64,000 nt of DNA from Streptomyces sp. NBC_01497 (lineage in GTDB: Bacteria > Actinomycetota > Actinomycetes > Streptomycetales > Streptomycetaceae), in contig NZ_CP109427.1 in assembly GCF_036250695.1 (NCBI RefSeq), forward strand, positions 8,308,001 through 8,372,000, given 5' to 3'. A program made the position numbers and the translations under genes. Below the pieces are notes generated by a model, which was not told where the DNA came from, did not search any database, and worked only from the letters and a program-made list of their open reading frames with translations. Below are positions 9,307 to 32,767 of the stretch, piece after piece (the stretch's first letter is position 1; each line of letters opens with the position of its first letter).

Positions 9307-12300
9307 TCACCGGTCTTCTTCGTCTGCGTGCCGCACGGGGGATGCCCTGTGCGACCACGGGCCGCCGTCGGTGCCTTCGCGCCTCGCGGTGTGCTCCTTG
9401 AGCAGGCTCGCGAAAGGCCATTGAGGCCGCAAGTAGACGTATTCGCCCCGCTCCTCGATCTCCCGTGCGGCCAGAGCGATGGTCCGCCGTGCCTCGTCCT
9501 CGGCACCCGTGTACAGCTCGGCGTCCGCGAGCAGCCCCAGGTGCAGGGCCCGGCGGAGCAGTGTCCGGTGCTCCGCCGCCTCTCGCAACGCGCCGCGCAT
9601 GCGGGCCAGTCCTTTCTCGCGCAGGCCCTGATGCACCTCGGCCCAGCCGAGCGGGACGGCGAGCATCCTGTGCCAGTAGGTGAGCTGGCACCGGGCAGCC
9701 AGATCCAGCCCTGCCCGGCCGGCCCTCCAGGCGCCTTCGACGTCGCCTTCCACGACGGCGAGTACGGCGTCCACGTAGCGGGCGAAGGCGCGGTCCCACG
9801 GCCTGTCGTAGTGGTGGGACTTGGTCAGTCGCAGGAGGTCCGAGCGGTGGCGCAGAGCTTCGGCCTGATGGCCGCTCAGCCAGTGGGTGAGCGCCAGGTA
9901 GGCGCGGTAGTCGATGCGCTGGTCGTGCAGCAAGGAGTTCAGGCGGAGTTCCCCGTCGGGAGCGACCAGGAGCCGGTCGATGATCTCGACCCCCTGGTTG
10001 AGCACGGTGAGTGACTCCTCCAGACGGCCACTGACATGGAGTGTGACGCCTTCCGCGTAGCAGCCCGCTGACTTGGCCTGGTCTCCGCCACCGTATTCGG
10101 CCAGCTCGTGCAGCAGGCCGGCACTCTCGGCCGCCGTGGCGTACCGGCCCTCGGCGATGGCGACGATGGCCTGCGTGTGCAGCAGTTCGGTCGGCTGTGT
10201 GTTGTCGAGCAGATGCTCCAGGTGCAGGGCTCGTCCGAAGGCGCCCTTGACCCGCCGCGAGCCGTAGCCCTCCAGAACGGCCCCCAGCCACATCAGCCTC
10301 TTCCTCAGGAGTAGTTCGACGGCGAGCGCCTCCTCGTCCGCCGGCAGCTCCGCGAGGACGGAGGCCACGTCTTCCAGGCGGTGCTTGGCGTCGGTGTGGA
10401 AGAAGCGCTCCTGGGCCTGATCGGCCAAGTCCAGCAGAGGATGCACTCCTTTGCCCGCACCGAGGGCCCGGGCGGCCTCACGGCAGTGGTGGCGGATCTC
10501 CGCGGTGTCGTCCCCGGCCCGGTACCGCGCGGCCAGGGCTGTCGAGACGTCCTGGTGCCATCGGGCGCGGGCGACGGGCTGTGCGTCCTCCAGCAGGAAG
10601 TCGCGAACGAGGCCGTGGCGGAAGGACAGGAGGTTCCCGTCGGCGGCGTCAGGGCGCAGGAGCCCGGTGACAAGGATGTCGTCGACGAGGGTCTGAGGCA
10701 GTCCGCGTGAGGCGAGTACGTCGCACAACAGGTGCTGCCTGACACGCGTGCCGATCACGGCGCAGAGGGTGAGGACATCGTACGCCTCGGGGCTGCAGTC
10801 ACTCAGCCGCTCGTACAGCACCTCACGCACGTCGAAGGGGACCGGTCGCCGGTGCGTGGGATCGGCCGACGTCCGCGTCGCGCGCAGGCCCTGCAGCAGG
10901 AACGGGTTTCCGCCGGTGGCGGTGTGCAGTCGCCGCACCTCGTCCTGGGGCGGTGTCGAGCCGCTGACCGTGGCGATCAGCTCGCCGCTCTGCGCCTCGG
11001 TGAGGCCCCGTAATTGGACGGTACTGGCATTGCTCTCCTGCAGGATGCGTCCCACGGCCCGCCGCAAGCTCTGGTCCTTGAGCAGGTCGTGGTCGCGCAG
11101 GGAGGCGACGACCAGTACACGGGCCCTGTTGATCTGGCGGGTGAGCAGGTGGAGCAGATCCAGCACACGCGGATCCGCGTAGTGCAGATCCTCCAGGAGG
11201 CACACCAACGGGCCTCGTTCCGCGGCGGAGAGCACGGCCTGGCACACCCACATCTGACGCTCGAAGTGCTGCGCGGACGTCCACTCGCCCGGAGTCGGGA
11301 GATCGATCGGCGCGCGCTGCCCGTCCTCGCCCTGTAACTGCTGGACTGCCTGCTCCCAGACCCAGTAGGCCGGTGACGACGGTACGGCGCTGCATGCGGC
11401 GGAGACGACCCGCACCTCGGGACCGGCCATGCGGGCCACTTCCCGGAGCAGTTGTGTCTTGCCGATGCCCTGCTCCCCGATCACGAACAGCAGGTGACCG
11501 CCTTCGTGAGTGGAGTCCGCCAACAGGCCTTTGAGTCGGGCGAGTTCTTCCTGGCGGCCGATGTGTCGCCGGTTGGGTGGGGACGCGGGCGCGGCTGAGG
11601 CGGTCGTCGACACCGGCACCTGCGGGTGCGGCGTCCGGGTGTCGTGCGCGCAGGGGCCGGCGAGGGAGGACGCGCTGGCCTCCGGGGTGCTCGTGAGTTC
11701 CTGGCGAAGGATCTCCCCGTGCAGCGTCTGCAGTTCCCGGCTCAGATCGACCCCGAGTTCCTCCGCCACCGCGATGCGCATCCGTTCGTACGTGAGCAGT
11801 GCCTCGGCCGACTGGCCGGAGTGGTACTGGGCTCTCATCAACTGGCTGCCCAGCCGTTCTTGTCCGGGGTTGCGGCGCAGTTCTTCGCTGAGCTGGAGGG
11901 CCACCTCCTCGTAGGCGCCGAGCCGGAGGGATGCCTGGGCCCACAGATCCAGCGCGCGCAGACGGATCTGTTCGAGGCGGTCCGCTTCCGTCACGGCGAA
12001 TTCGTAGTCGCAGAGTTCTCCCAGAGGCCGGCCTTTCCACAGATCGAGGGCCGACCAGGCGACTGTGCGCGCCCCTTCCGTGTCGCCGGATTTGAGCAGT
12101 CTCCGACTGTCCTTCACCTTCGCCTCGAATATCACCGCATCGACAAGGCGGGCATCGGCGTCCAGCTGGTATCCGTGGAGATGGTGGGCGACCCGGATGG
12201 ATCGGTCATGATGCCCGAGTACTTTCCTGAGCCGGGACACGTAGGCCTGGAGTGTGCCGGTGACCTGGCGCGGGGGGTTGTGTCCCCAGATCGCCCCGAT

Positions 12301-12486
12301 GATCGAGGGCAGGGGGACCACCCTGCCCACGTGGGTGAGGAGGATGGCGAGGAGCGCGCGCTGTCTGGGCGGGCCGAGCTCGATGTACTTCCCGTCCGAG
12401 CTCAGACTCAGGGGACCGAGAATCTCGAATCGAAGGTGGGACGCAACCACGTCGTCTTGCGCAGTGCCGCTCCGGCTCACATGCAT
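9307..12486 (-). CDS. Large SARP-type transcriptional regulator with AAA ATPase (AfsR/Cvm7-like)
   Basis: 1059-residue regulator, probably pathway-specific for the clavam cluster. It starts with an OmpR-type winged helix (LRFEILGPLSL, residues about 18-110), then a bacterial transcriptional activation domain (about 115-265). After a Ser/Pro linker comes an AAA ATPase with Walker A GEQGIGKT near residue 337 and a Walker B-like CLLEDLHYADP, followed by a long helical, TPR-like C-terminus. Large SARP-ATPases of this type control clavam genes in S. clavuligerus (Cvm7-type); the equivalence is inferred. Two Leu residues (codons 384 and 492) use TTA (11335-11337 and 11011-11013), so translation should depend on the bldA tRNA. 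The ATG at 12486 is chosen because GAGGG lies just upstream and the frame before it looks non-coding. Confidence 0.85.
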   Translation of the reverse strand: MHVSRSGTAQDDVVASHLRFEILGPLSLSSDGKYIELGPPRQRALLAILLTHVGRVVPLPSIIGAIWGHNPPRQVTGTLQAYVSRLRKVLGHHDRSIRVAHHLHGYQLDADARLVDAVIFEAKVKDSRRLLKSGDTEGARTVAWSALDLWKGRPLGELCDYEFAVTEADRLEQIRLRALDLWAQASLRLGAYEEVALQLSEELRRNPGQERLGSQLMRAQYHSGQSAEALLTYERMRIAVAEELGVDLSRELQTLHGEILRQELTSTPEASASSLAGPCAHDTRTPHPQVPVSTTASAAPASPPNRRHIGRQEELARLKGLLADSTHEGGHLLFVIGEQGIGKTQLLREVARMAGPEVRVVSAACSAVPSSPAYWVWEQAVQQLQGEDGQRAPIDLPTPGEWTSAQHFERQMWVCQAVLSAAERGPLVCLLEDLHYADPRVLDLLHLLTRQINRARVLVVASLRDHDLLKDQSLRRAVGRILQESNASTVQLRGLTEAQSGELIATVSGSTPPQDEVRRLHTATGGNPFLLQGLRATRTSADPTHRRPVPFDVREVLYERLSDCSPEAYDVLTLCAVIGTRVRQHLLCDVLASRGLPQTLVDDILVTGLLRPDAADGNLLSFRHGLVRDFLLEDAQPVARARWHQDVSTALAARYRAGDDTAEIRHHCREAARALGAGKGVHPLLDLADQAQERFFHTDAKHRLEDVASVLAELPADEEALAVELLLRKRLMWLGAVLEGYGSRRVKGAFGRALHLEHLLDNTQPTELLHTQAIVAIAEGRYATAAESAGLLHELAEYGGGDQAKSAGCYAEGVTLHVSGRLEESLTVLNQGVEIIDRLLVAPDGELRLNSLLHDQRIDYRAYLALTHWLSGHQAEALRHRSDLLRLTKSHHYDRPWDRAFARYVDAVLAVVEGDVEGAWRAGRAGLDLAARCQLTYWHRMLAVPLGWAEVHQGLREKGLARMRGALREAAEHRTLLRRALHLGLLADAELYTGAEDEARRTIALAAREIEERGEYVYLRPQWPFASLLKEHTARREGTDGGPWSHRASPVRHADEEDR

Positions 12487-13324
12487 CGATCCCTCAGCTC
12501 GAAGTGTCGGTCCGACGGCCCATGGCCCCCCGCACCGCCGCTCTCCCTGTGCAGAGCCGGCGGAAAGGCTTGCCGCCGACGCCGGTGAATATGCAGCAGC
12601 AGGGTTCCGGTGCTGTCCCGGCCCACTACCTCTGCGGAACCCGGAAGCGGCCAAGGAGGTATCAGCTCACCTTTCGCCACCTCGCGGGCTGATAGGCACG
12701 TCAATGTTCTGTTCCTGGTGATTGGGCCCACGCCGCGGCCTCGGACCGGCTCCAACTACACGCCGTTCATCCCGCCGACGGCGGGCCGCCGGGCGGGACA
12801 GGCGGCGAAACCTGCCCGGAACGGCGGTTGTAGACGATCCGGAACGGAGGTTCGCGACGACGGAGGGCAGGGGAATCCGGGTGTCGCGCGCGCCCGGGAA
12901 GGGGCCGGTGCCGGCCGTCCGTAGCGGTACGCGAGTGGCGCCCGGCGGAGATCAAGCGCGGGCTCGCGTACGGGACCCGCTTGAAACCGTGCTCGTACAG
13001 CTGGACCTCATGGGGAGTCGGGTTCGGGTTCCCCGTACAGGAACCCCGTTGCGGCAGTTCCGTGCCACCGGTGTGTCCGCGAGGCCCGTCGTGGCGCGGG
13101 CATCCCGGGCTCTTGCGGGCTGTCGTGCGACGGGCGTCCACGGCCCGGCTGGGCCCGGGTCGTGGCGGGCGTCCCCTCCGGGTACCGACGCGGACTGCAG
13201 AAGACCGGACTGCAGAAGACCGGACTGCGGGAGGACGGACTGCGGGAGGACGGCGGCCCCGCAGCCGTCCCGCGGCTCGCCACGTGGTGGACGTAGAACC
13301 CTCAGCAGGGCTCTCTCCGTCCGG
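12487..13324. other. Gene-free spacer of about 0.84 kb
   Basis: It lies upstream of the large regulator and downstream of the MFS gene. The open frames here have no recognisable domain. It contains the 15-bp tandem repeat at 13191-13250 and presumably the regulator's promoter. Confidence 0.4.
13191..13250. repeat. Tandem 15-bp repeat, four copies
   Basis: Two copies of CGGACTGCAGAAGAC are followed directly by two copies of CGGACTGCGGGAGGA. The units share their first eight bases and arose by duplication in two steps. The array is non-coding and lies close to the 3' end of the MFS gene. Confidence 0.9.
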
Positions 13325-14611
13325 TCACGGCGCTACCGCGTCCGTGCCCTCGGACAGCGTCACGGGGGCGGACACCGCGCGTCTCAGCCGTCCGAGCAGC
13401 AGGTGGGCCGAGGCCGCCATCAGCGCCAGGATCAGGCACATCGTCCAGACGACCGCAGTGTTGAACGTCTGGATCAACTGCCCGCTGATGAGCGGCGCCA
13501 GGGCCACGGAGGCACTCCACACGGACAGGAACCAGCCCTGGTAGGTGCCATGGGCGTGGGGCGGCGCCAGGGCGGCGACGAGCGCCATACAGGTGGGCCA
13601 CACCACGATCTCTCCCAGACTCCAGATCACCACGGTCGCCGCGTATCCGGGCAGGGAGTGGACGAGAGCGGTCAGTGCCAGACCGACTCCGGTGGTGACC
13701 GTGGCGGCGGCGAGAGCGGACTCGGGACGCAGCCGCCCGGCCAGTCGGGTCAACGGCAGCTGAAGGACAGCGATGACGAGGCCGTTCATCATCATGGCCA
13801 GGCCGTAGTCGCCCGGGGTGAGATGATCGGCCGTCATGGTCAGGGGCAACGCGACGAGCGGTTGTTGGAACAGCACCCCCAACAGCAGGATCGAGCCGAG
13901 CAGGACCAGGAAAGGCCGGTCACGATGGACGGCGGGGGCCGGCCGGGCGTTCGTACCGGCCTGCGTGCCGCCGCTCTTCGCGGCCGGGGCGGGCCGGGTC
14001 TCGGGCACCCATCGGTAGACGACGGCTCCGGCGGCCAGGTTGGCCAGCGCGTTGACGACGAAAAGGATGACGAAGCCGTGTTCGGCAGCCGAGCCGGCGG
14101 TCACGGCAGCCACGGAGAAGCCCAGGTTGGTGGCCCAGTAGAGCAGCGAGTAGGCGCGCGGCCGATCGGTCGGGTCGACCAGGTCGGCGACGGCCGCCGC
14201 ACGGGCGGGCCGCGTGGCGTTCAGCCCCACCCCCACCACCAGCGTGCCGACGAGCACCAGCGCTTCGGAGCGCGCCGTGCCGAGTACCACCATGCCGGTG
14301 ACGGCCAGGGCCTCGCTGGCCAGGAGAACCGCGCGGCGGCCCAGGCGGTCGGCCAGAACCCCGCCCAGCAGTGACGCGATTCCGCTGCCGACGCCGAACA
14401 CGGCGAGTGTCAGGCCGGTGAACGAGGCCGAGTAGCCCCGTTCACCGGTCAGGTAGATCGCCAGGAACGGAAGGACGAACCCGCCGGCCGAGGTGATGAG
14501 CATCCCTGCCCAGAGCCACCAGAACGGGCGGGGGAGTCCGCTCACGGCGGTGCGCAGAGGACCCGCGAGGCGTTGTGCGCCACGGTGCACCGCGCCGTGG
14601 CGCGTGCTCAA
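13325..14611 (-). CDS. MFS-family exporter in the clavam cluster
   Basis: About 428 residues with roughly twelve hydrophobic segments. It has the MFS motif between helices 2 and 3 (GGVLADRLGRRAVLL) and a loop with R-P-A-R near helix 4 (NATRPARAAAVADLV), as in drug:H+ antiporters of the YfcJ/MdtH type. The preferred start is TTG at 14611, overlapping the ATP-grasp stop as TTGA and preceded by GGAGAGGAG. A GTG at 14590 is the alternative. The coupling to the ligase gene suggests export of the ligated clavam and a role in self-protection. The substrate assignment is inference from context. Confidence 0.85.
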   Translation of the reverse strand: MSTRHGAVHRGAQRLAGPLRTAVSGLPRPFWWLWAGMLITSAGGFVLPFLAIYLTGERGYSASFTGLTLAVFGVGSGIASLLGGVLADRLGRRAVLLASEALAVTGMVVLGTARSEALVLVGTLVVGVGLNATRPARAAAVADLVDPTDRPRAYSLLYWATNLGFSVAAVTAGSAAEHGFVILFVVNALANLAAGAVVYRWVPETRPAPAAKSGGTQAGTNARPAPAVHRDRPFLVLLGSILLLGVLFQQPLVALPLTMTADHLTPGDYGLAMMMNGLVIAVLQLPLTRLAGRLRPESALAAATVTTGVGLALTALVHSLPGYAATVVIWSLGEIVVWPTCMALVAALAPPHAHGTYQGWFLSVWSASVALAPLISGQLIQTFNTAVVWTMCLILALMAASAHLLLGRLRRAVSAPVTLSEGTDAVAP

Positions 14612-15879
14612 CTCCTCTCCTCCTCGTACGCGACGTGCAGCGTGCTCGCGAGGTGATCGCGGTAGGCCACCGCCTCCGCGTCCGACGTGTGCCGGGAGAG
14701 CACGATGGCCGGGTACCCGGACCAGTCCGGGTAGGGGCGGAGCAGCGCGCCGGGACCGACCGTCTCCACTACGTGGTCCACCCGGGGGTCCTCGCGCACT
14801 GCCTCCAGGCCGCGCACGCCGCTGATCCGGCCGCCGGTGCCGACCGGGACGAGGTACGCGGCAGCGACGCCTGTGGGTACGGGTTCCTCGCTCCAGCACA
14901 GTGGTTCCAGGCCGAGATGGACACGCAGGGCCTCCGCGGCCAGGTCGATGCCGCTGCTGACGTGGACGAGGTAGTGCATGAAGCCCCCGCCACCGATCCG
15001 CGCGCCCGTCTCCAGGAGAACCGGCCGTATCCCGCCGACCAGCCTCAGCTCGGTGTGGGTGGTGCCTTCTGTCAGGCCGAAGGCGTGGTGCGCGGCGATG
15101 ACCTCCGCCTCGACCGCCGCCAGTACCTCGGCCGGCAGCCGGGCGGGGGCCCGCAGGGTCGTCTCCTCGAAGTAGGGGCCCGTGAGCTCACCCTTCCAGC
15201 TGATGGCGCAGACACGGACCTTCCCGTGGTGGATCAGGGACTCGGCGGAGATCTCCGGACCGTCCAGATACTCCTCGACCAGCACGCCCGCTTCCTCGGC
15301 TGGCGCGTCGGCGCTGCGCAGGTGGGTCTCGACGAGTTCCCAGGTGCGGGCCACGGCTTGCTTCAGGTCGTCCTTGTCGTCGACGCGGATCACACCGAGG
15401 CTGGAGAAGCCGTTCGCCGGCTTGACCACGACGGGAAAGCGCAGGGCCAGCGCGTCGGTCCAGCCGTCCGGATCGTCGAGCACCGTGAAGCCGGGGGTGC
15501 CGAGCCCCGCCTCCCGCAGAAGGCGGCGCATACGGCGCTTGTCGCGTACCACCGCTGCCGCCTGATCGGTCAGGCCCGGCAGGCCCAACTCCCGTGCGGC
15601 GCGCGCCACGAAGGGCACGACCTTCTCGTTGCCCGCCATGATTCCGCCGAACGGTTCACGCCGGTAGCGGTCGGAAAGCACAGCCAGAGCGGCCTCCTGG
15701 TCGCCGTCGATGTCGAGCGGCAGCACTTCGACCACCGCGGCGGCTCGCGCGGCCGCCTCCGGGGTGTCGTCACCCCGGAGGACGAGGATCAGGTCGATTC
15801 CCGCGCGGTCGGCCGCGTCGAAGACCCAGGGAAGGGTGGACAACTGTCCGACGAGAAGGAGTTTCGGACGCTGTGGCAT
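14608..15879 (-). CDS. ATP-grasp ligase, probable amino acid/peptide ligase for clavam tailoring
   Basis: 423-residue ATP-grasp protein like the BacD/L-amino acid ligase group, which join a carboxylate to an amine through an acyl phosphate. An N-terminal Rossmann-like domain (LLLVGQLSTLPWVFDAADRAG) precedes the ATP-grasp lobes: Lys strand FPVVVKPANGFSSLGV, EEYLDGPEIS, and metal-binding LLETGARIGGGG near residue 295. It is translationally coupled to the MFS exporter. No such ligase is part of the core clavam pathway. With the SHMT-like enzyme at 28514, the simplest role is joining an amino acid to an alanyl-type clavam, as in valclavam or clavamycins. That role is inferred; the fold is secure. 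Confidence 0.85.
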   Translation of the reverse strand: MPQRPKLLLVGQLSTLPWVFDAADRAGIDLILVLRGDDTPEAAARAAAVVEVLPLDIDGDQEAALAVLSDRYRREPFGGIMAGNEKVVPFVARAARELGLPGLTDQAAAVVRDKRRMRRLLREAGLGTPGFTVLDDPDGWTDALALRFPVVVKPANGFSSLGVIRVDDKDDLKQAVARTWELVETHLRSADAPAEEAGVLVEEYLDGPEISAESLIHHGKVRVCAISWKGELTGPYFEETTLRAPARLPAEVLAAVEAEVIAAHHAFGLTEGTTHTELRLVGGIRPVLLETGARIGGGGFMHYLVHVSSGIDLAAEALRVHLGLEPLCWSEEPVPTGVAAAYLVPVGTGGRISGVRGLEAVREDPRVDHVVETVGPGALLRPYPDWSGYPAIVLSRHTSDAEAVAYRDHLASTLHVAYEEERS

Positions 15880-16010: not shown

Positions 16011-17366
16011 TCAGCGCACGTGACCGTCGGGGTCCGTCCGGCTGAGCACCGACCGCAGCCCCTCGACGAGTTCGTCCGCCTCGTTGCGTGTGAACACCAG
16101 CGGCGGATTGATCACCAGGGCGTACGGGTTGGTGCGCAGGATGATGCCCGCCGTTTCCCGCAGGGCGTCCGACACCTCGCCGGTACCCTTCGGCAGCGAG
16201 GAGCGCGTCTCCTTGTCCGACGTCAGTTCCACGGCCATCTGCAGGCCCAGCCTGCGTACCTCTGCGACGACCGGCACATCGGTCAGTTCCTCAAGCCTGC
16301 GGCCCAGATAGTCACCGATCACCGAGGCGTTCGCCAGCAGTCCCTCACGTTCGATGATGTCGAGGTTGGCGAGCGCCACCGCGCACGCTGTGGGGTGCCC
16401 GGTGTACGTGTAGCCGACGGGGAAGCCGAGTTCGCCGGTCACCTGCGCGGCGACCTCCTCGGTCGTCAGGACCGCGCCGTGCGGAAGATACCCGGACGTG
16501 ATGCCCTTCGCGGTGACCATGATGTCGGGGGTCACCCCGTAGTGGTCGGCGGCGAACCAGTGGCCGGTGCGTCCGTAGGCCGTCACGACCTCGTCGGAGA
16601 TCAGCAGGATGCCGTAGGAGCGCAGGAGTTCCGCGACCCGCGGCCAGTAGTCCTCCGGCGGGACGATCGCGCCTCCGCCACCCATGACCGGCTCGCCGAT
16701 CATGGCGGCGATCCTCTCCGGGCCGATGCGCTCGATGCTCTCGCGCAGTTCCGCCAGGCAGAAGTCGCTGACGTCGGCGCCGTCGAACAGATCCCTGCGG
16801 TACGGGTGCGGAGGGGTCAGAAAGTGCACGTCCGGCAGGGAAGGCCCGAAACCCTGGTGGTAGACCGGGGATCCGGACACCCCGCCGCTGCCGTAGCCGA
16901 CACCGTGGTAGGCCATGCGGCGGGAGAGGACCCAGGTCCGCTGCGTCTCGCCGCGGCGGTGGTGGTAGAGCCGCGCCATGCGCAGGGCGATCTCGTTGCC
17001 CTCGGCCCCGCCGCTGGTGAAGTACACCTGGCTCAAGCCCTCGGGACTCAACTTCGTCAGCCGGGTGGCAAGTTCGATGGCGCGGTCGTTGGTGAGGGTT
17101 CCCCAGGTGTGGAAGTACTCCAGGCGGGTCATCTGGTCCGCCGCCGCCCGGGCGAGTTCCGCGCGCCCGTGTCCCACCTGGCACACACCGAGCACCGCCG
17201 AGGCGTCCAGGTACTCGCGGCCGGCGGCGTCGCGGACGCGGCTGCCGGAGCCGGACACCAGGACCGTCCGGTCGGTGCGGTGGGCGGGCAGTGTGGGATG
17301 GATGAGGGTGGCACGGTCCGCTGCGACGAGCCCTGTTTCGAGCACGGCGGGGGCTTCAGAGGTCAC
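16011..17366 (-). CDS. cvm6: Class III PLP-dependent aminotransferase (Cvm6-like)
   Basis: 451-residue fold-type I aminotransferase. It has the class III landmarks YFTSGGAEGNEIALRMAR (phosphate loop), ISDEVVTAYGRTG (the Asp that pairs with the pyridine nitrogen), and MVTAKGITSGYLPHGA with the Schiff-base Lys at about 287. The GTG at 17366 is chosen because AAGGAG lies seven bases upstream; a start 36 bases further up is possible but weaker. It is divergent from the LLM monooxygenase with 222 bp between, the same neighbourhood as cvm6-cvm5 in S. clavuligerus. Cvm6-type enzymes are proposed to remove the amino group from clavaminate on the way to 5S clavams; that function is known by proposal and genetics, not from this sequence. 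Confidence 0.88.
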   Translation of the reverse strand: MTSEAPAVLETGLVAADRATLIHPTLPAHRTDRTVLVSGSGSRVRDAAGREYLDASAVLGVCQVGHGRAELARAAADQMTRLEYFHTWGTLTNDRAIELATRLTKLSPEGLSQVYFTSGGAEGNEIALRMARLYHHRRGETQRTWVLSRRMAYHGVGYGSGGVSGSPVYHQGFGPSLPDVHFLTPPHPYRRDLFDGADVSDFCLAELRESIERIGPERIAAMIGEPVMGGGGAIVPPEDYWPRVAELLRSYGILLISDEVVTAYGRTGHWFAADHYGVTPDIMVTAKGITSGYLPHGAVLTTEEVAAQVTGELGFPVGYTYTGHPTACAVALANLDIIEREGLLANASVIGDYLGRRLEELTDVPVVAEVRRLGLQMAVELTSDKETRSSLPKGTGEVSDALRETAGIILRTNPYALVINPPLVFTRNEADELVEGLRSVLSRTDPDGHVR

Positions 17367-17588
17367 GGGGCGCTCCTTCGGAAGGCTGAGGCTGCTCCTC
17401 ACACTCGCGTCGCCCGCTTGATGAACGCTGGACGCCCCGCTGTGTGTTCGGCCGCCGCGCCGGTCCCCGCGAAGAGCCTTTTCAGCCTCGCGACAGACAC
17501 CACGTCAAGCGGACGCCAAGGGCCCACTGGGACGATCGGGTCTCCCCCCGCATCCCCTTCTCGGTGCTCAGACCCGAAAGGATCCCCG

Positions 17589-18773
17589 GTGAAATCGATC
17601 CTCTTCTACCTGCCGACCGTCGGCAGCCACGCACAGGTCCTGCGCGGCATGTCGGGCGTCAACCCGCAGAACTACCAGAACATGCTCAGGCAGCTCACCC
17701 AGCAGGCCCAGGCAGCCGACGAACTCGGCTACTGGGGACTGTCGTTCACCGAGCACCACTTCCATGTCGAGGGGTTCGAGGTCTCCAACAACCCCATCAT
17801 GCTCGGCCTGTACCTGGCCATGCAGACCAAGCACATCCGCGTCGGGCAGATGGCCAACATCCTGCCCTTCCACAACCCGGTGCGACTCGCCGAAGACCTG
17901 GCCATGCTCGACCACATGGCCCACGGGCGCACCTTCGTCGGCATCGCGCGCGGCTTCCAGAAGCGCTGGGCCGAGATCATGGGCCAGGTGTACGGAGTCG
18001 GGGGAACACTCTCCGACGCGGGGGAGAACGACCGTCGCAACCGCGCGCTCTTCGAGGAGCACTGGGAGATCCTCAAGAAGGCGTGGACGACGGAGACCTT
18101 CTCGCACTCCGGTGACCAGTGGACCATCCCCGTCAAGGACTTGGAGTTCGACTACGACGCCGTGCGCCGCTACGGCCGAGGCGTCGACGAGAGGGGGATC
18201 GTCCACGAGGTGGGCATCGCTCCCAAGCCCTATCAGCGTCCTCACCCGCCGGTGTTCCAGCCCTTCAGTTTCAGTGAGGACACCTTCCGCTTCTGCGCCC
18301 GTGAGGGCGTGGTGCCCATCATGATGAACACCGACGACCGGATCGTCCGGCGCCTGATGGACCTCTACCGTCAGGAGGCCGAGGCGGCGGGGCACGGCAC
18401 ACTGCGGCGGGGCGAGCGCATCGGCGTGATGAAGGACGTACTGGTGTCGAGGGACGCCGACGAGGCCCACCACTGGGCGGCGCGCGGCGGCGGTTTCATC
18501 TTCGAGAACTGGTTCGGCCCCATGGGTTTCACCGAGGCGCTGCGCAACGTCGGGGAGAAGGGGCCGATCGGCTCCGACTACGCGACGCTGGTCGACCGGG
18601 GCCTGGAGTGGGTCGGTACCCCGGACGACATCAACCGCAAGATCGAGAAGCTGGTGGAGCAGCACGACCCGGAGTACCTGCTGCAGTGCCAGTACTCCGG
18701 TCTGATCCCGTCGGATGTGCAGTTGCGCAGCCTTGAGCTGTGGGCCACCGAGATCGCGCCGAACTGGCTGTGA
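17589..18773 (+). CDS. cvm5: LLM-class flavin-dependent monooxygenase (Cvm5-like)
   Basis: 394-residue luciferase-like (LLM) FMNH2-dependent monooxygenase with a TIM-barrel core. Visible landmarks are the N-terminal strand ILFYLPTVGSHAQ, the barrel segment WGLSFTEHHFHVEGF, IRVGQMANILPFHNPVRLAEDLAMLDHMAHGR (given here as two joined motifs near residues 80-112) and GIARGFQKRW. The GTG at 17589 follows AAAGGA by about seven bases. The MetX-like hydrolase begins 13 bp downstream, so the two are co-transcribed. In S. clavuligerus, cvm5 is needed for 5S clavams but not for clavulanate. The flavin reductase gene at 29780 could supply reduced FMN. An oxidative, Baeyer-Villiger-like step on the clavam side chain is plausible but inferred. 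Confidence 0.88.
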   Translation: MKSILFYLPTVGSHAQVLRGMSGVNPQNYQNMLRQLTQQAQAADELGYWGLSFTEHHFHVEGFEVSNNPIMLGLYLAMQTKHIRVGQMANILPFHNPVRLAEDLAMLDHMAHGRTFVGIARGFQKRWAEIMGQVYGVGGTLSDAGENDRRNRALFEEHWEILKKAWTTETFSHSGDQWTIPVKDLEFDYDAVRRYGRGVDERGIVHEVGIAPKPYQRPHPPVFQPFSFSEDTFRFCAREGVVPIMMNTDDRIVRRLMDLYRQEAEAAGHGTLRRGERIGVMKDVLVSRDADEAHHWAARGGGFIFENWFGPMGFTEALRNVGEKGPIGSDYATLVDRGLEWVGTPDDINRKIEKLVEQHDPEYLLQCQYSGLIPSDVQLRSLELWATEIAPNWL

Positions 18774-18786
18774 ACAGGAGCACACA

Positions 18787-19791
18787 GTGGACCACGACGT
18801 CTTCGAAATCGACGAACTGCCGCTGCTCGGCGGCGGGACCCTCACCGACGCGCGGATCGGCTACGCCGTGCACGGGACACTCGACGCGGACGGCTCCAAC
18901 GCCGTCCTGTGCCCGTCCTTCTTCGGCGGCGACCACACCGGCTACGACTGGCTGATCGGCGCGGGCCGGCCGTTGGACACGCGCCGCTACTGCGTCATCA
19001 CCGCGGGCCTGTTCGGCAACGGTGTCTCCAGCTCGCCCAGCAACCATGCGACGGGGGCGGACTTCCCGCTGATCACCCCGCAGGACAACATCGCGGCCCA
19101 GCACCGGCTCCTTACCGAACACCTGGGCGTCCGGGAGCTGGCGCTGGTCGCCGGATGGTCGATGGGCGCGGCGCACACCTACCAGTGGGCGGTCTCCCAC
19201 CCGCGGATGGTGCGCCGGATCGCGCCGGTCTGCGGTGCCGCCGTGACCAGCGAGCACAACCGGGTCTTCCTGTCCGGCCTGGCGGCGGCACTGGCCGCGG
19301 ACGGGGGTGCGGAGCGGGGGCAGCGCGCGGCGGGCCGTGTCTTCGCGGGATGGGCGGCCTCGCATCCCTTCTGGGCGGAGGAACGCTACCGGGAACTCGG
19401 ATTCGCCGGCCGGGACGACTATCTCGCCGGCTTCTGGGAGCCGTTCTTCGTGGCCGGGCCACCCGCCGAGGACCTGCTGGCCATGGTCCGCACCTGGGAG
19501 CAGGCGGACGTGGGCGCGACCCCCGGCTTCCACGGCGACACCGCGGCGGCGCTGGCCTCGGTCACGGCCGAGGCGGTGCTGCTGCCCGGCGCCCTCGACC
19601 AGTGCTTCGCCGTCGCGGACGAGGAGCGGGCCGCCACCCTGCTGCCGCACGCGGCACTGGAGGTGATCCCGGGCGTGTGGGGCCACCTGGCGGGGGCGGG
19701 GGCGAACGGCGCCGACCGCGACTTCGTCGGCAGCGCGCTGACCCGGTTGCTGGCACGCCGGACGGCGGTGGCCGCGGCACCGGCCGGGTGA
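18787..19791 (+). CDS. MetX-like alpha/beta hydrolase/acyltransferase in the clavam cluster
   Basis: 334-residue alpha/beta hydrolase related to homoserine O-acetyltransferase (MetX). The oxyanion region (LCPSFFGGDHTGYDW) and the nucleophile elbow AGWSMGAAHTYQW (S125) are clear. The acid is in LPGALDQCFAVADEE and the catalytic His in GVWGHLAGAG. The GTG start at 18787 has an AGGAG six bases before it and lies 13 bp after the monooxygenase stop. In S. clavuligerus the gene in this position beside cas1 is cvm4; equivalence by position is likely but not proven here. It may hydrolyse the formate or acyl ester left after the Cvm5-type oxidation, or transfer an acyl group. Methionine synthesis is unlikely given its neighbours. 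Confidence 0.82.
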   Translation: MDHDVFEIDELPLLGGGTLTDARIGYAVHGTLDADGSNAVLCPSFFGGDHTGYDWLIGAGRPLDTRRYCVITAGLFGNGVSSSPSNHATGADFPLITPQDNIAAQHRLLTEHLGVRELALVAGWSMGAAHTYQWAVSHPRMVRRIAPVCGAAVTSEHNRVFLSGLAAALAADGGAERGQRAAGRVFAGWAASHPFWAEERYRELGFAGRDDYLAGFWEPFFVAGPPAEDLLAMVRTWEQADVGATPGFHGDTAAALASVTAEAVLLPGALDQCFAVADEERAATLLPHAALEVIPGVWGHLAGAGANGADRDFVGSALTRLLARRTAVAAAPAG

Positions 19792-21276: not shown

Positions 21277-23198
<1,922 letters not shown>

Positions 23199-23237
23199 GC
23201 CGTCATGACTCCTTCGGGTCTGCGGTGCCACGATCCG

Positions 23238-26872: not shown

Positions 26873-27865
26873 ATGCCCCCGTTCCACGCCCTGCCCCGGC
26901 GCACCCTGCGGGAACTCGAAGTCAGTGCACAAGGGCTGGGCTGCCTGCCCACCACGGAGTTCTACGGCCGTCCCGACCCGGGACGCTCACTCGCCACGAT
27001 CCGCGCCGCCCTGGAGGCCGGAGTGAACCTGCTGGACACCGCCGACGTACAGGGCCTGGGCGCCGGCGAGGAACTGCTCGGCCGGGCCGTCGCCGGACGA
27101 CGGGACGACGTGGTGATCGCCAGCAAGTTCGGCATGGTGCGCTCCGCCGAAGGCTTCCAGGGACTGTGCGGCGAACCCTCCTACGTACGTTCCGCCTGCG
27201 AGCGCTCGCTCCGGCGCCTGCGCACGGACCGCATCGACCTCTACTACCAGCACTGGATCGACCCGGCGGTTCCCGTCGAGGAGACCGCGGGCGCGGTGGC
27301 GGAACTGATCCGGGAAGGCAAAGTGCGCCACTTCGGACTCAGCGAGCCCTCCGTCGCCACACTGCGCCGGGCCGACGCGGAGTACCCGGTCACCGCGGTG
27401 CAGAGCGAGTGGAGCCTGTGGACGCGCGACATCGAGGCCGAGATCGTGCCGGTCTGCCGTGAACTGGGGATCGGCGTCGTCGCGTACGCGCCGCTGGGCC
27501 GGGGATTCCTGGCCGGCGGGATCACCACGCAGAGCGACCTGGCCGACGAGGACTTCCGCCGCGGCCAGCCGCGCTTCGCCCCCACCGCCCTGGCCCGCAA
27601 CCAGGAACTGCTGCGCCGCCTGCGTCCCCTCGCCGTCCGGCTCGGCCTGACCCTGGCGCAACTGGGCCTGGCCTGGCTCCACCACCAGGGCGCGGGCGTC
27701 GTCCCCATCCCGGGCACCAGCGACCCGGCCCACCTGACGGAGAACCTGTCCGCCGCCACCGTTCACCTGCACGAGGACGATCTCGCCGCGGTGGCCCGTG
27801 CCGCCGCCCTCCCCGTTTACGGCGAGCGCTACACGCCCGCGATGCTCGCCATGACCGGCAACTGA
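26873..27865 (+). CDS. cvm1: Aldo-keto reductase (Cvm1-like) with altered catalytic tetrad
   Basis: 330-residue (beta/alpha)8 aldo-keto reductase. The usual catalytic tetrad is Asp-Tyr-Lys-His. Asp55 (LLDTADVQG), Lys85 (VIASKFG) and His127 (YYQHWID) are present, but the Tyr position is Gln60, read clearly from a CAG codon. The NADPH-binding region near the C-terminus (VVPIPGTSDPAHLTENL) is intact. The ATG at 26873 follows GGAGG by seven bases. It heads the plus-strand operon that continues with the SnoaL-like, SHMT-like and flavin reductase genes. In S. clavuligerus, cvm1 is required for 5S clavams. The missing Tyr means that ordinary carbonyl reduction may be slow or replaced by another reaction. 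Confidence 0.9.
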   Translation: MPPFHALPRRTLRELEVSAQGLGCLPTTEFYGRPDPGRSLATIRAALEAGVNLLDTADVQGLGAGEELLGRAVAGRRDDVVIASKFGMVRSAEGFQGLCGEPSYVRSACERSLRRLRTDRIDLYYQHWIDPAVPVEETAGAVAELIREGKVRHFGLSEPSVATLRRADAEYPVTAVQSEWSLWTRDIEAEIVPVCRELGIGVVAYAPLGRGFLAGGITTQSDLADEDFRRGQPRFAPTALARNQELLRRLRPLAVRLGLTLAQLGLAWLHHQGAGVVPIPGTSDPAHLTENLSAATVHLHEDDLAAVARAAALPVYGERYTPAMLAMTGN

Positions 27866-28017: not shown

Positions 28018-28473
28018 ATGCCCGCGGCAACAGCCCCTATGACGGACGAACAGCGAAAAGCCGTCATCACCGCCTATCTCAAAGCCTTCGACAACGGCGG
28101 GACCAGTCACGACGGAATCCCCCTCATCGACTTCTTCTCCCAGGACGCGCTCTTCTTCTTCCCCAAATGGGGCCTCGCCCACGGGAAGAGCGAGATCAGC
28201 CGCATGTTCGGGAATCTCGGGGAGACCGTCAAGTCGGTCGAGCACCATTTCTCGTCGTTCAACTGGATCACCACCGCAACCGACGTGCTCGCGGTCGAGG
28301 GCACCACGCACGGTGAGCACCGCGACGGCCCCTGGCGCGTGGGCGTACCCGAATGGGGCGCGGGACGCTGGTGCGGAGTGTTCGAGGTACGCGGCTTCCT
28401 CATCGACCGCGCCTTCATCTACATGGACCCCGACTACGCGGGCAAAGACGTAGCGCGTTACCCGTGGCTCTGA
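28018..28473 (+). CDS. cvm2: SnoaL/NTF2-like protein (Cvm2-like)
   Basis: 151-residue protein of the SnoaL-like NTF2 fold, a cone-shaped alpha+beta barrel used for cyclisation, isomerisation or hydration chemistry. The opening helix (DEQRKAVITAYLKAFDNGG) and the following DFFSQDALFFFPKWG strand are typical. GGAGG lies about nine bases before the ATG at 28018. It is the second gene of the cvm1-type operon and matches the position of cvm2 in S. clavuligerus, annotated there as isomerase-like. A role in inverting the ring stereochemistry from 5R to 5S or in side-chain rearrangement has been considered for such genes; nothing here proves it. Confidence 0.82.
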   Translation: MPAATAPMTDEQRKAVITAYLKAFDNGGTSHDGIPLIDFFSQDALFFFPKWGLAHGKSEISRMFGNLGETVKSVEHHFSSFNWITTATDVLAVEGTTHGEHRDGPWRVGVPEWGAGRWCGVFEVRGFLIDRAFIYMDPDYAGKDVARYPWL

Positions 28474-28513: not shown

Positions 28514-29713
28514 ATGGACGTCCTGGCCGCACTCCAGCGCAAGCCCAGCCTCAACCTCTTCCCGATCGAGAACCGCCTCTCGCCGAGGGCCGCAGCGGCA
28601 CTCGCCACCGACGCGGTCAACCGCTACCCCTACTCCGAGACGCCCGTGGCCGTCTACGGCGACGTCACGGGACTCAACGCCGTCTACGACTACTGCGTCG
28701 ACCTCACCAAGGAGTTCTACGGCGCCCGCCACGCCTTCGTGCAGTTCCTCTCCGGACTGCACACGATGCACACCGTCCTCACCGCGGTGACCCCCCGCGC
28801 CGGCCGGGTCATGGTCCTCGCCCCCGAGAACGGCGGGCACTACGCCACGGTGACCATCTGCGAGAGCTTCGGCTACGAGGTCGGCTTCCTCCCCTTCGAC
28901 CGCGAACGGCTCCAGATCGACCACGCCGCACTGGCCGCCCACGTCGCCGAACACCCGGTCGACGTGATCTACCTGGACGCCTCCACCACCCTGCGTTTCC
29001 CCGACGCCCAGGCGCTGCGGTCGGCCGCCCCCGCCGCGACCATCTGCCTGGACGCCTCACACCTGCTCGGTCTGCTGGCCGCGGCACCCGGCACCCTTCT
29101 CCTCGACGGCGGCTTCGACAGCATCTCCGGCAGCACGCACAAGACACTGCCCGGACCGCAGAAGGGCCTCCTCGTCACCAACAGCGACGGCCTCGCCGAA
29201 AAGGTCGCTGCACGTATCCCCTTCACCGCGTCGAGTTCCCACTCCGCGACGGTCGCCAGCCTGGCGATCACGCTGGAGGAACTCCTGCCCCACCGGGCCG
29301 ACTACGCGCGTCAGGTCATCGCCAACGCACGGCGCCTGGGCGAGGAACTGGCCAGGCGGGGATTCGACCTGCCCGGCGAGAGCTTCGGCTACACCGACAC
29401 GCACCAGGTGTGGCTGCACATGCCGGAAAGCAGCGGTACGCACGCGTGGGGACGACTGCTCACCAGCGCCGACATCCGCACCACGACGGTGGTCCTGCCC
29501 AGCAACGCCAGGCCGGGACTGCGGCTGGGCACCCAGGAACTGACCCGCTGGGGCATGAAGGAAGACGACATGGCTGCGGTCGCCGAGCTGCTGGCGCGCC
29601 TCCTGCTCCGCTCCGAGGACTCCCGCAAGGTCGCCGCGGACGTCGGTGACCTCGCACGGGAGTTTCCCGGGGTGGCCTACGTCGGGCAACCCGTCCCGGT
29701 TGCCGCCGCCTGA
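28514..29713 (+). CDS. Serine hydroxymethyltransferase-like PLP enzyme (aldolase) in the clavam cluster
   Basis: 399-residue fold-type I PLP enzyme. The Schiff-base Lys210 lies in GSTHKTLPGPQKG, the diagnostic SHMT motif. YLDASTTLRF and ICLDASHLLGLL supply the cofactor contacts. Length and motif order resemble glycine hydroxymethyltransferases, shorter than housekeeping GlyA, with an N-terminus rebuilt around NLFPIENRLSP. The ATG has AGGAG six bases upstream and the gene lies in the cvm1-cvm2-cvm3 operon. The S. clavuligerus alanylclavam genes include an SHMT-like orfA. The expected reaction is aldol addition of glycine to a clavam-2-carbaldehyde, giving a beta-hydroxyalanyl clavam; this is inferred from family and context. 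Confidence 0.87.
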   Translation: MDVLAALQRKPSLNLFPIENRLSPRAAAALATDAVNRYPYSETPVAVYGDVTGLNAVYDYCVDLTKEFYGARHAFVQFLSGLHTMHTVLTAVTPRAGRVMVLAPENGGHYATVTICESFGYEVGFLPFDRERLQIDHAALAAHVAEHPVDVIYLDASTTLRFPDAQALRSAAPAATICLDASHLLGLLAAAPGTLLLDGGFDSISGSTHKTLPGPQKGLLVTNSDGLAEKVAARIPFTASSSHSATVASLAITLEELLPHRADYARQVIANARRLGEELARRGFDLPGESFGYTDTHQVWLHMPESSGTHAWGRLLTSADIRTTTVVLPSNARPGLRLGTQELTRWGMKEDDMAAVAELLARLLLRSEDSRKVAADVGDLAREFPGVAYVGQPVPVAAA

Positions 29714-29779
29714 GTCCCGGAGAGGCGTGCCGTCCCGCACCTGCGGCACGCCCCGGCCGGCAGCACCGGAGGAATGACG

Positions 29780-30355
29780 ATGAAGCCCTCCCCGCAGGAC
29801 CCGGGCCCCGCACGCATCGACGGTCCGCCGGTGGCCGGCGCGCTCCTGCGAAGGGTGGCAGCCCACCACCCGACCGGAGTGGTCCTGGTCACCGGCCCGC
29901 CCCCGGCCCCTCACCAGCTCCCGCCCGCGATGGTCATGGGGACATTCACCTCGGTCTCGCTCGACCCGGCGCTCATCGGCCTGCTCCCGGCCAAGTCCTC
30001 CACCACCTGGCCCCGCATCCGCACGGCCGGTCGCTTCTGCGTCAACGTGCTCGCGGCTGACCAGGAAGAGCTGTGCCGGAACTTCGCCGCCGCGGATCCG
30101 GGACGCTGGAAGGTCCCGTACCGACGTGGCGCCGGCGGTTCTCCCGTGCTGCTCGAAGCTCTGGCCTGGTTCGACTGCGAACTGGCCGGCGAAGTGGACG
30201 CTGGAGACCACTGGTTCGTCACCGGCGCCGTCCGCGACCTGGGGGTCCAGCGGGGCGACCCGCCCCTGGTCTTCTTCCAGGGGCGTTACAGCCACTGCCG
30301 CCCCCCTGCCGACTCACCCGTGCCTCAGCGCGGCACGGGCGCGACCTCCGCCTGA
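29780..30355 (+). CDS. cvm3: Flavin reductase-like protein (Cvm3-like)
   Basis: About 191 residues, a member of the FMN-binding split-barrel flavin reductase family that supplies reduced flavin to a partner monooxygenase. Landmarks are HHPTGVVLVTG, GTFTSVSLDPALIGLLPAKSS (FMN contacts, positions about 52-72), FCVNVLAADQEELC and the closing HWFVTGAVRDL followed by PLVFFQGRY. Two ATGs are six bases apart; the one at 29780 has GGAGG at a seven-base spacing, while 29774 is too close. It is the fourth gene of the cvm1-type operon. Its likely partner is the LLM monooxygenase at 17589. Confidence 0.88.
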   Translation: MKPSPQDPGPARIDGPPVAGALLRRVAAHHPTGVVLVTGPPPAPHQLPPAMVMGTFTSVSLDPALIGLLPAKSSTTWPRIRTAGRFCVNVLAADQEELCRNFAAADPGRWKVPYRRGAGGSPVLLEALAWFDCELAGEVDAGDHWFVTGAVRDLGVQRGDPPLVFFQGRYSHCRPPADSPVPQRGTGATSA

Positions 30356-30949: not shown

Positions 30950-32767
30950 TTGCAGTCGAACCCCCAGCTCAAGGACGTGCGTTTCCGGATCCTGGGTCCG
31001 TTGGAGGGCTGGGACGGCGACCGCCGCCTCAGGCTCGGCGGATTCGTCAACGAGCGCGTTCTGGTGATGCTGTTGCTGGAGGCGGGACAAGTGGTCCCGG
31101 CCTCTCGACTGATATGGGCGGTATGGGATCAGCGGCCGCCGGCCACAGCTCTCCAGCAGATACGCAAGGCCGTCGCCGATCTGCGCCAACGCGTTCCCGG
31201 TGGACGCCACATGATCGCCACTGAGCCACCTGGCTACCGTGCGATGGTGGCGGACGGTCAAGTGGACCTGAAACTCTTCGACACCCGGGTGCGTACCGCG
31301 AGGAGGGCACACGAGGAAGGCCGTGTCGATGAAGCCGTCACGCACTTGCGGGCCGGGCTCGACCTGTGGCGGGGGCCCATCCTCGCCGGGACCGGCGGAC
31401 CCGTGATCGAGGCCGCCGCCGCGGGCTGGGAGGAGCGCCGTATCGCCGCGACCGAGCGCAGCTTCGACCTCCGTCTCGCCCGAGGTGAGGCCGGCGAGCT
31501 CGTCAGCGAGTTGCGTGAGGTCATCTCCACGAATCCGCTCCGCGAGAACCTGCGCGGGCAGCTGATGCTCGCTCTTCACCGCTCGGGACGCCGTGGCGAG
31601 GCGGTGGAGGAGTACGCCCGGCTGCGCACCCTGCTGTCGGAGGAACTCGGCATAGAACCCAGCCCCCGCCTCTCGGAACTGCACACGGCGATCCTGCGTG
31701 GCTCCCTCGCGCTGGAGGCCCGGGTGCCGGTGGCGTCGGCCGAAAGGGCTCTTCCGCGCACGCTGCCGCACGACTTGGCGGACTTCACGGGGCGCCAGAA
31801 GGAAATCGAACAGCTCATCGCCGCCGTTTCGGCGGACACGGGACGCGCGGGACCGCACGTCCTCGTGATCGACGGCATGGGTGGAAGCGGCAAAACCGCT
31901 CTCGCGGTCCGGGTGGCCCATCTCCTCGCCGACGAGTACCCGGGCGGGCAGCTCTACCTCGACCTGCGGGGTTTCACACCGGGGGCGGAATCCCTTTCCA
32001 CCCAAGAGGCCCTCGGGACATTGCTCGAAGTGCTGGGCATACCGCAGGAGAACTCCGTCGCGCACGAGCCCCATGCCCGTATCCCTCTGTGGCGCGACGC
32101 GACAGCCGACCGCCCCTTCATCCTGATACTCGACAACGTTGCTGATGCCGCACAGATACGGCCCCTGCTCCTCAGCTGTGCGGGGAGTCTGGTGATCATC
32201 ACGAGCAGGACCCGGCTCGCCGAACTCGACGGAACCACCGGGCTGACCCTCGACCTGCTCGGAGACGAGGAAGCCATCGGGCTCCTCGGCCGCATCCTCG
32301 GCACCGAACGGGTCACCGCGGAACCCCGGGCGGCACTCGAACTCGTCGGGCTCTGCGGGAACCTGCCACTCGCGCTGCGCATAGCCGGCGCCCGTCTGCG
32401 CAAACGACCGCACTGGCCGCTGAGCCACCTGGCCGACCGGCTCCGGGACGGCACCCGCACGCTGGCCGAACTGCAGTGCGGCGACGTCAGTGTGGCAAGC
32501 GTCCTGCGTACCTCGTACGAAGCGATCCCGCCCGAGCACCAGAGTGGTTTCCGAACACTCAGTCATCACCCCGGAGACGACCTCGACATCACGGCCGCGG
32601 CGGCCTTCCTGGGCACCGAGCCGCACCGGGCCGAAGAAACGATGGAGCTCCTGCTGGACGTGCACCTGCTCCAGCAGCACACTTTCGGCCGGTACTCGTT
32701 CCACCACCTCATCCGCAGTCTCGCCCACACCCTTCCCGCTCTGCACCCGTCCCTCATCTCCTCGTAG
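30950..32767 (+). CDS. SARP-type regulator with NB-ARC ATPase domain
   Basis: 605-residue AfsR-like activator. The winged helix begins VRFRILGPLEGW (residues 10-100), followed by the BTAD helical domain (about 105-255). The NTPase has Walker A DGMGGSGKTAL near residue 308, Walker B FILILDNV and the sensor-like VIITSRTRLAEL. There is no TPR tail, so it is shorter than AfsR. The TTG at 30950 is the best start: GGAG lies eight bases before it, and it keeps the whole winged helix. It sits at the right end of the clavam cluster, opposite the large SARP at 9307. I saw no TTA codon in it. Control of clavam genes is likely but inferred. Confidence 0.87.
   Translation: MQSNPQLKDVRFRILGPLEGWDGDRRLRLGGFVNERVLVMLLLEAGQVVPASRLIWAVWDQRPPATALQQIRKAVADLRQRVPGGRHMIATEPPGYRAMVADGQVDLKLFDTRVRTARRAHEEGRVDEAVTHLRAGLDLWRGPILAGTGGPVIEAAAAGWEERRIAATERSFDLRLARGEAGELVSELREVISTNPLRENLRGQLMLALHRSGRRGEAVEEYARLRTLLSEELGIEPSPRLSELHTAILRGSLALEARVPVASAERALPRTLPHDLADFTGRQKEIEQLIAAVSADTGRAGPHVLVIDGMGGSGKTALAVRVAHLLADEYPGGQLYLDLRGFTPGAESLSTQEALGTLLEVLGIPQENSVAHEPHARIPLWRDATADRPFILILDNVADAAQIRPLLLSCAGSLVIITSRTRLAELDGTTGLTLDLLGDEEAIGLLGRILGTERVTAEPRAALELVGLCGNLPLALRIAGARLRKRPHWPLSHLADRLRDGTRTLAELQCGDVSVASVLRTSYEAIPPEHQSGFRTLSHHPGDDLDITAAAAFLGTEPHRAEETMELLLDVHLLQQHTFGRYSFHHLIRSLAHTLPALHPSLISS

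What the first reader, a model, noticed from the sequence alone, without database searches (positions are those of the whole stretch)
9307..32767. A 5S-type clavam gene cluster with complete early pathway
The sequence shows, in order, oat, cas, pah, bls and ceaS on one strand with conserved active sites (CAS H144/E146/H279, BLS SGGIDSS, CEAS GDGG). Counterparts of cvm1, cvm2, cvm3, cvm5 and cvm6 flank them. Unlike S. clavuligerus, where early genes and cas1/cvm genes lie in separate paralogous clusters, everything is in one 23-kb block here. Clavulanate-specific late genes (clavaldehyde reductase, N-glycyl-clavaminate synthetase) were not recognised, so a non-clavulanate clavam is expected.
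Basis: partly seen in the sequence, partly recalled or inferred. Interest (0 to 1): 0.9.

Follow-up and report, generated by a model that had tools for sequence, protein, structure and literature searches.

The report
Gene cluster for a dipeptide clavam
This Streptomyces region holds a full set of genes for making a clavam (a small beta-lactam relative of clavulanic acid), most likely one joined to an ordinary amino acid, and it belongs to an already known type of cluster that other actinomycetes carry too.

Summary
cvm1/2/3/5/6-type genes flank them. The order cvm6-cvm5-cvm4-[cas]-cvm1-cvm2-cvm3 equals that published for S. clavuligerus, with genes that S. clavuligerus keeps in its plasmid paralogue cluster inserted. 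No clear orthologue of clavulanate-specific Cpe, Cad or GcaS was found in the genome, so 'not clavulanate' stands. The ligase makes the expected product more specific: a beta-hydroxy clavam amino acid capped by an ordinary amino acid (valclavam/clavamycin type). A single block is not unusual: two other genomes are collinear. Verdict: real, but a new member of a known kind. Loose ends worth a test: a Baeyer-Villiger-like oxygenase (Cvm5) beside an esterase-like Cvm4 could explain late clavam steps, and the ligase lineage reappears in a conserved 7-deazaguanine-type cluster of genomes in which no clavaminate synthase was found.

The parts
9307..12654 (-). SARP/AfsR-type regulator with BTAD and AAA domains, cvm7-like position (start probably nearer 12486)
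   Evidence: Pfam BTAD E 2.5e-33, AAA_16; 68% and 62% identical copies next to the MFS gene in G001 and G002, but in the other orientation relative to it
13325..14545 (-). MFS transporter, presumed exporter
   Evidence: Pfam MFS_1 E 1.8e-47; adjacent to the ligase in G001, G002, G003, G004, G005, G008
14608..15879 (-).
   Evidence: ATP-grasp_4, ATPgrasp_N, LAL_C2; best PDB hit L-amino acid ligase BL00235 3vot, E 3.3e-75, aligned 6-420; 27% to GcaS
16011..17402 (-). class III PLP aminotransferase, cvm6-type
   Evidence: Pfam Aminotran_3 E 6e-88; 65-86% copies at the clavam loci of 8 of the 9 genomes in which the transaldolase was found at >=65% minus G003/G004, which have only 31-33% ones
17589..18773 (+). 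luciferase-like flavin monooxygenase, cvm5-type
   Evidence: Pfam Bac_luciferase E 2.6e-34; best PDB hit 3,6-diketocamphane 1,6-monooxygenase 4uwm, 76.5 bits, with alkanal monooxygenase 8cbb close behind at 70.3
   Evidence: NCBIfam PRK07581 361.7 bits, cut-off 332, against 102 for MetX; best PDB hits 5e4y and 5d6o; 74% identical S. clavuligerus protein P0138; SCLAV_2924 = cvm4 at this place in the published order
19915..21096 (-). oat, ornithine acetyltransferase
   Evidence: Pfam ArgJ E 1.2e-123; 1vz6 643 bits
21277..22251 (-). cas, clavaminate synthase
   Evidence: NF043003 560.6 bits; 1drt 592 bits; H144/E146/H279
22248..23231 (-). pah, proclavaminate amidinohydrolase
   Evidence: 1gq6 584 bits
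23238..24758 (-). bls, beta-lactam synthetase
   Evidence: 1jgt 649 bits
24760..26475 (-). ceaS, carboxyethylarginine synthase
   Evidence: 1upa 1062 bits; next best CEAS-like protein in this genome 32%
26873..27865 (+). aldo/keto reductase, cvm1-type
   Evidence: Pfam Aldo_ket_red E 1.1e-68; start at an ATG
28018..28473 (+). NTF2-like protein of 151 aa, cvm2-type
   Evidence: AlphaFold2 mean pLDDT 75.7; Foldseek hits to ketosteroid-isomerase and limonene-epoxide-hydrolase folds, E 8.6e-08 and up
28514..29713 (+).
   Evidence: 77% identical to an S. clavuligerus protein on a 1.8-Mb contig (P0260); aligned to ObiH 7k34 with H, D, K, R catalytic/PLP residues kept
29774..30355 (+). flavin reductase, cvm3-type
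   Evidence: Pfam Flavin_Reduct E 8.9e-36
30950..32767 (+). second SARP/AfsR-type regulator
   Evidence: BTAD E 3.7e-43, NB-ARC; 70% copy at the end of the cluster in G001, in opposite orientation

Best explanation
A valclavam/clavamycin-type 5S-clavam cluster. CEAS, BLS, CAS and PAH (with OAT supplying arginine/ornithine metabolism) make clavaminic acid. The cvm6-type aminotransferase removes the side-chain amine to give an aldehyde; the cvm-encoded enzymes (NTF2-like Cvm2, flavin monooxygenase Cvm5 with reductase Cvm3, hydrolase Cvm4, aldo/keto reductase Cvm1) take off the carboxylate and trim the side chain to a clavam aldehyde; [quoted passage not shown] the ATP-grasp ligase joins an ordinary L-amino acid to it; the MFS protein exports the dipeptide. 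SHOWN here: gene content, enzyme families, conserved residues, single copy of ceaS and cas, absence of a Cpe hit and of close Cad/GcaS relatives, conservation of the set in other genomes. INFERRED: every reaction after clavaminic acid, the substrate order, the identity of the amino acid added, export, and expression.
For: Early enzymes. Order of the cvm genes equals SCLAV_2922-2928 (cvm6, cvm5, cvm4, cas1, cvm1, cvm2, cvm3), and pah1, oat1, cvm6P, cvm7P and an SHMT gene lie at SCLAV_p1072-p1079 (published table, passage). Transaldolase: 77% to the S. clavuligerus protein, ObiH residues kept; PMC5490192 proposes that OrfA is an L-threonine transaldolase (passage) and PMC10495429 found KaTTA, from a predicted valclavam cluster and grouped with OrfA, active with L-Thr but not Gly or Ser (passages). 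Ligase: closest to L-amino-acid ligase 3vot. Ligase and transaldolase go together: of 46 cas loci 9 carry the transaldolase at >=65% identity, and 8 of these 9 genomes have the ligase at >=60%. None of the 9 loci shows Cpe or Cad, and none of the 7 loci with Cpe shows the transaldolase (10-kb flanks).
Against: No chemistry was measured. One transaldolase genome (G012) lacks the ligase (best 33%); G089, collinear for the cvm part, has no linked ligase (best 53%, over 1 Mb away). Two cas loci have a 53% ligase and no transaldolase (L026, L043), so the pairing is not strict. The same ligase lineage works in a non-clavam cluster, so its presence does not by itself prove a clavam acceptor. orfB-D of alanylclavam synthesis (recalled) were not searched by sequence; they are only not among the genes annotated in the block.
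Confidence: 0.7

Rival explanations
1. The cluster makes only simple 5S clavams and alanylclavam, as S. clavuligerus does; the ligase and MFS pair is a passenger or acts on something else.
For: All S. clavuligerus cvm1-cvm6 counterparts and orfA are there; the ligase lineage also sits in five clusters without cas; G012 and G089 have the cvm genes without a linked ligase.
Against: Ligase in 8 of 9 transaldolase genomes, inside the block in G001 and G002 at the same place.
Confidence: 0.2
2. The cluster makes clavulanic acid.
For: All enzymes up to clavaminic acid are present, and one ATP-grasp ligase.
Against: Cpe/Orf12 of S. jumonjinensis has no hit in the genome (an empty answer without a positive control in that call, though the same query finds Cpe in 7 of 46 cas loci by tblastn). 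GcaS finds at best 33% proteins far away and the window ligase at 29%; Cad finds only SDRs of 43% or less.
Confidence: 0.02
3. The Cvm4-type protein is a homoserine O-acyltransferase serving self-resistance, because valclavam is said (recalled) to hit methionine biosynthesis.
For: MetX superfamily fold; the only protein in this genome that scores well with the MetX model (1.4e-25).
Against: Below the MetX cut-off (91.8 against 500 bits); far closer to the PRK07581 group and to 5e4y/5d6o than to MetX or CefG-type enzymes; strains without the gene or cluster exist widely (15 of 392 genomes have any relative at E<=1e-50).
Confidence: 0.05
4. The cluster is silent or broken.
For: No expression data.
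Against: All 16 listed genes are open reading frames with high third-position G+C and the checked residues are kept.
Confidence: 0.15

Closest known systems
S. clavuligerus clavam cluster (cvm6-cvm5-cvm4-cas1-cvm1-cvm2-cvm3) and plasmid paralogue cluster
   Same: Same cvm order around cas (published table); OrfA-type protein 77%, Cvm4-type 74% identical
   Different: There the early genes lie in other clusters; here they are inserted in one block with the transaldolase, plus a ligase and MFS gene
S. antibioticus Tu1718 clavam (valclavam) cluster
   Same: Recalled: early and cvm genes together, product valclavam; known to me here only by citation
   Different: Not compared: neither paper nor sequence was available
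Clusters of Streptomyces sp. SID10853 (L004/G001) and S. olivochromogenes A53 (L006/G002)
   Same: Collinear from MFS to flavin reductase, 68-92% identical proteins
   Different: Regulator genes differ in orientation or identity
Kitasatospora aureofaciens ATCC 10762 cluster (L019/G008)
   Same: All listed biosynthetic genes, 66-89% identical
   Different: Ligase and MFS lie beyond a regulator gene, in another order
S. clavuligerus/S. jumonjinensis clavulanic acid cluster
   Same: ceaS-bls-pah-cas-oat operon order
   Different: Lacks Cpe, Cad, P450, OppA and GcaS; has cvm genes, transaldolase and a different ligase

Membership tests
clavaminic acid (early clavam) pathway | CEAS, BLS, PAH, CAS and OAT, each closest to its solved clavam-pathway enzyme | tested here: met
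5S-clavam (cvm) cluster | cvm1-cvm6 counterparts in the order of SCLAV_2922-2928 | tested here: met
   by family and order, sequence identity checked only for the cvm4- and orfA-type proteins
clavulanic acid cluster | Cpe/Orf12, Cad, GcaS | tested here: not met
L-threonine transaldolase | ObiH H131, D204, K234, R366 kept | tested here: met
   (window H109, D180, K210, R337)
L-threonine transaldolase | activity with L-Thr and not Gly/Ser | not testable with these tools
   reported for KaTTA only (passage); whether KaTTA is an exact orthologue was not seen
ATP-grasp L-amino-acid ligase | ATP-grasp plus LAL C-terminal domain, closest solved relative a dipeptide ligase | tested here: met
GcaS (N-glycyl-clavaminate synthetase) | orthology to GcaS of a clavulanate producer | tested here: not met
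   27% identity; separate in the tree rooted on GcaS
MetX homoserine O-acetyltransferase | score above the TIGR01392 cut-off | tested here: not met
type II Baeyer-Villiger monooxygenase | oxygen insertion next to a carbonyl, FMNH2 from a separate reductase | tested here: inconclusive
   best solved relative is a diketocamphane monooxygenase but luciferase-type proteins score almost as well; a flavin reductase gene is in the cluster
valclavam cluster (S. antibioticus) | orthology to the S. antibioticus Tu1718 genes | not testable with these tools
   paper and sequence not held

The most novel reading that the evidence does not exclude
Cvm5 with Cvm3 is a two-component Baeyer-Villiger-type oxygenase that turns clavam-2-acetaldehyde into 2-formyloxymethylclavam, and the neighbouring Cvm4 is the esterase that frees 2-hydroxymethylclavam, so that Cvm1 can set the one-carbon-shorter aldehyde for the transaldolase. 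The final ligase is a portable amino-acid-capping module: its lineage has moved between clavam clusters and a conserved 7-deazaguanine-type cluster.
Probability: 0.3. Interest if true: 0.55.

Novelty: new member of a known kind. Interest (0 to 1): 0.3.

Why it matters
Late clavam steps are drawn as uncharacterised in recent reviews of the pathway (figure legend). A compact natural block with one copy of each gene, in a genome without clavulanate genes, is easier to dissect than S. clavuligerus with its three clusters, and it names a candidate enzyme for each missing step, including the ligase that would cap the clavam amino acid.

Tried and rejected
GcaS as identity of the ligase: rejected (27%; tree). 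Cvm4 as self-resistance MetX: kept only as a weak rival. Cvm4 as esterase: rests on my recollection that 5e4y/5d6o are acetylesterases of a MekB/CgHle group; depositors call them homoserine O-acetyltransferase, and three paper searches gave no text on this; PMC4038895 only names a mekA/mekB operon for ketone degradation (passage). Donor amino acid from ligase residues: not attempted by computation, no reliable code. Plasmid search with CAS: 81 records, all below 60% identity, not used further. Transaldolase-bearing clusters as one clade: not so; on a CEAS+CAS tree of 41 taxa the window groups with L004, L006 and L080 (bootstrap 100), while L036, L041 and L042 fall far away. L009 could not be searched as a genome. 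S. clavuligerus itself did not appear among the 46 genome-contig loci, so no direct alignment of its clusters was made. The ligase search scored only the 7997 best candidates, the cvm4-type and transaldolase searches 7994 each.
Full report
WHERE IT LIES. The window is bases 8308001-8372000 of contig C1 of a 9,081,801-base genome in two contigs, 99.75% complete. Sampled relatives labelled as the same genus include genomes reached by name as Streptomyces, so the host is a Streptomyces (for example G262 repeats the RP5T contig).

THE OBSERVATION. The five early genes are there, in the order and on the strand stated, and each has the matching clavam-pathway enzyme as its best solved-structure hit by a wide margin: CAS 1drt, BLS 1jgt, CEAS 1upa, PAH 1gq6, OAT 1vz6. 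CAS also passes the curated clavaminate synthase model. CEAS and CAS exist once: the next CEAS-like protein in the genome is 32% identical, and a PF02668 search gives three hits of which only the window one is CAS-like by the later CAS search.

WHAT WAS MISSED. First, an ATP-grasp protein at 14608-15879 with an L-amino-acid-ligase C-terminal domain, whose best solved relative is the dipeptide-forming L-amino acid ligase BL00235 (3vot, E 3.3e-75). It is not GcaS: 27% identity to the S. jumonjinensis protein. Second, a PLP enzyme of SHMT fold at 28514-29713 that keeps the residues named for the L-threonine transaldolase ObiH (H, D, K, R; residue list in a passage of PMC10495429; alignment) and is 77% identical to an S. 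clavuligerus protein on a 1.8-Mb contig. Third, a MetX-superfamily hydrolase at 18787-19791, the counterpart of cvm4: the published S. clavuligerus table lists cvm6, cvm5, cvm4, cas1, cvm1, cvm2, cvm3 as SCLAV_2922-2928 (PMC3992018, passage), which is the order here once the early genes are set aside. Fourth, an MFS transporter at 13325-14545.

COMPARISON. A scan of genome contigs with CAS gave 46 loci. Nine carry the transaldolase at 65% identity or more: L004, L006, L007, L013, L015, L019, L036, L041, L042. The ligase is found at 60% or more in 8 of these 9 genomes; G012 (L036) is the exception. The cvm4-type gene is in 5 of the 14 genomes searched, all five among the nine. Cpe is seen in 7 of 46 loci, none of them among the nine; the flanks reach only 10 kb, so these are lower bounds. 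G001 and G002 are collinear with the window from the MFS gene to the flavin reductase. G008 and the two contigs of G005 have the same biosynthetic genes in another arrangement; G012 lacks ligase and MFS; G013 and G014 lack the cvm4-type gene, MFS and flavin reductase hits; G003 and G004 lack the cvm5-, cvm4-, cvm2- and cvm3-type genes and have only a 31-33% aminotransferase. In 392 sampled genomes of the genus 28 have CAS at E<=1e-60, 18 the ligase at E<=1e-95 and 15 the cvm4-type protein at E<=1e-50; the four with that protein at 63% or more all have CAS, though in G292 the two lie over 1 Mb apart and the cluster copy there looks broken (partial ceaS and transaldolase hits).

NOT CLAVULANATE. 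Queries from the S. jumonjinensis cluster (L067) searched against the whole own genome: Cpe no hit (which by itself has no positive control), GcaS best 33% and the window ligase 29%, Cad at best 43%, one of 107 SDR-type matches.

HOW IT PROBABLY WORKS. Clavaminic acid is made as in other clavam producers (established pathway). The rest is inference. The aminotransferase would give an aldehyde. Cvm5 resembles FMN luciferase-like oxygenases; its best solved relative is 3,6-diketocamphane 1,6-monooxygenase (76.5 bits), but alkanal monooxygenase is close (70.3 bits). With a flavin reductase and a hydrolase in the cluster, a Baeyer-Villiger step followed by ester cleavage is a reasonable proposal and would explain 2-formyloxymethyl- and 2-hydroxymethylclavam, both listed for S. 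clavuligerus (passage). The transaldolase would then form a beta-hydroxy amino acid; PMC5490192 suggests this for OrfA (passage), and PMC10495429 found KaTTA of a predicted valclavam cluster active with L-Thr only (passages). The ligase would add an amino acid; ATP-grasp ligases that build such antibiotic peptides, even very promiscuous ones, are known from phosphonoalamides (PMC11867202, passages), where neither tested enzyme formed the simple dipeptide with the warhead, a warning against assuming substrate order. The structures and target of valclavam and clavamycins are recalled, not looked up.

THE LIGASE ELSEWHERE. Ligases 76-77% identical occur in five sampled genomes without a CAS hit (G157, G214, G285, G346, G392). 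In 5 of 5 the gene lies beside a SARP gene and genes for QueC, GTP cyclohydrolase I, QueE and a 2OG oxygenase. In a tree rooted on GcaS these proteins nest inside the clavam ligases, beside the window and SID10853 proteins (bootstrap 93-100 on the relevant nodes, 64 on one deeper node). The genomic setting of the other database proteins in that clade was not seen.

KNOWN OR NEW. The parts and their order are known from S. clavuligerus; a joint cluster is in print for S. antibioticus (citation only); 'valclavam' is a reference cluster in genome tables; KaTTA was assigned to a predicted valclavam cluster in 2023. In my ten paper searches I saw no text on the ATP-grasp ligase of such clusters, but the library lacks most subscription journals and the 2012 paper may well describe it.

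Noticed in passing
L073 10980-12248, L074 9815-11125, L075 9752-11014, L076 9045-10307, L077 765-2036: A ligase 76-77% identical to the window's sits in a conserved cluster with QueC, GTP cyclohydrolase I, QueE, 2OG oxygenases and a SARP gene (5 of 5 regions); these genomes gave no CAS hit, and the proteins nest inside the clavam ligase clade.
   Followed up: partly
window 54402-63698: Minus-strand set: LD-carboxypeptidase (S66), two oligopeptide-type ABC ATPases, a permease, a family-5 solute-binding protein and a prolyl oligopeptidase-family protein; looks like a dipeptide/oligopeptide uptake operon.
   Followed up: no
window 396-2270, 7173-8939, 51613-53946: FAD-binding aromatic hydroxylase-like, berberine-bridge-type oxidase and a second FAD_binding_3 protein near but outside the cluster.
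   Followed up: no
window 33692-37161: ABC transporter ATPase with a membrane partner gene and an ECF sigma-factor gene just right of the cluster.
   Followed up: no
G000 whole genome: No protein passes the MetX homoserine acetyltransferase cut-off; the window's cvm4-type protein is the best match.
   Followed up: no
L026 and L043: cas loci with a 53% ligase and a 63% cvm6-type aminotransferase but no transaldolase: perhaps another amino-acyl clavam.
   Followed up: no
L078 and L080: Partial transaldolase hits (71% and 43% of the length) and in L078 a partial ceaS: possibly decaying clavam clusters in G292 and G089.
   Followed up: no
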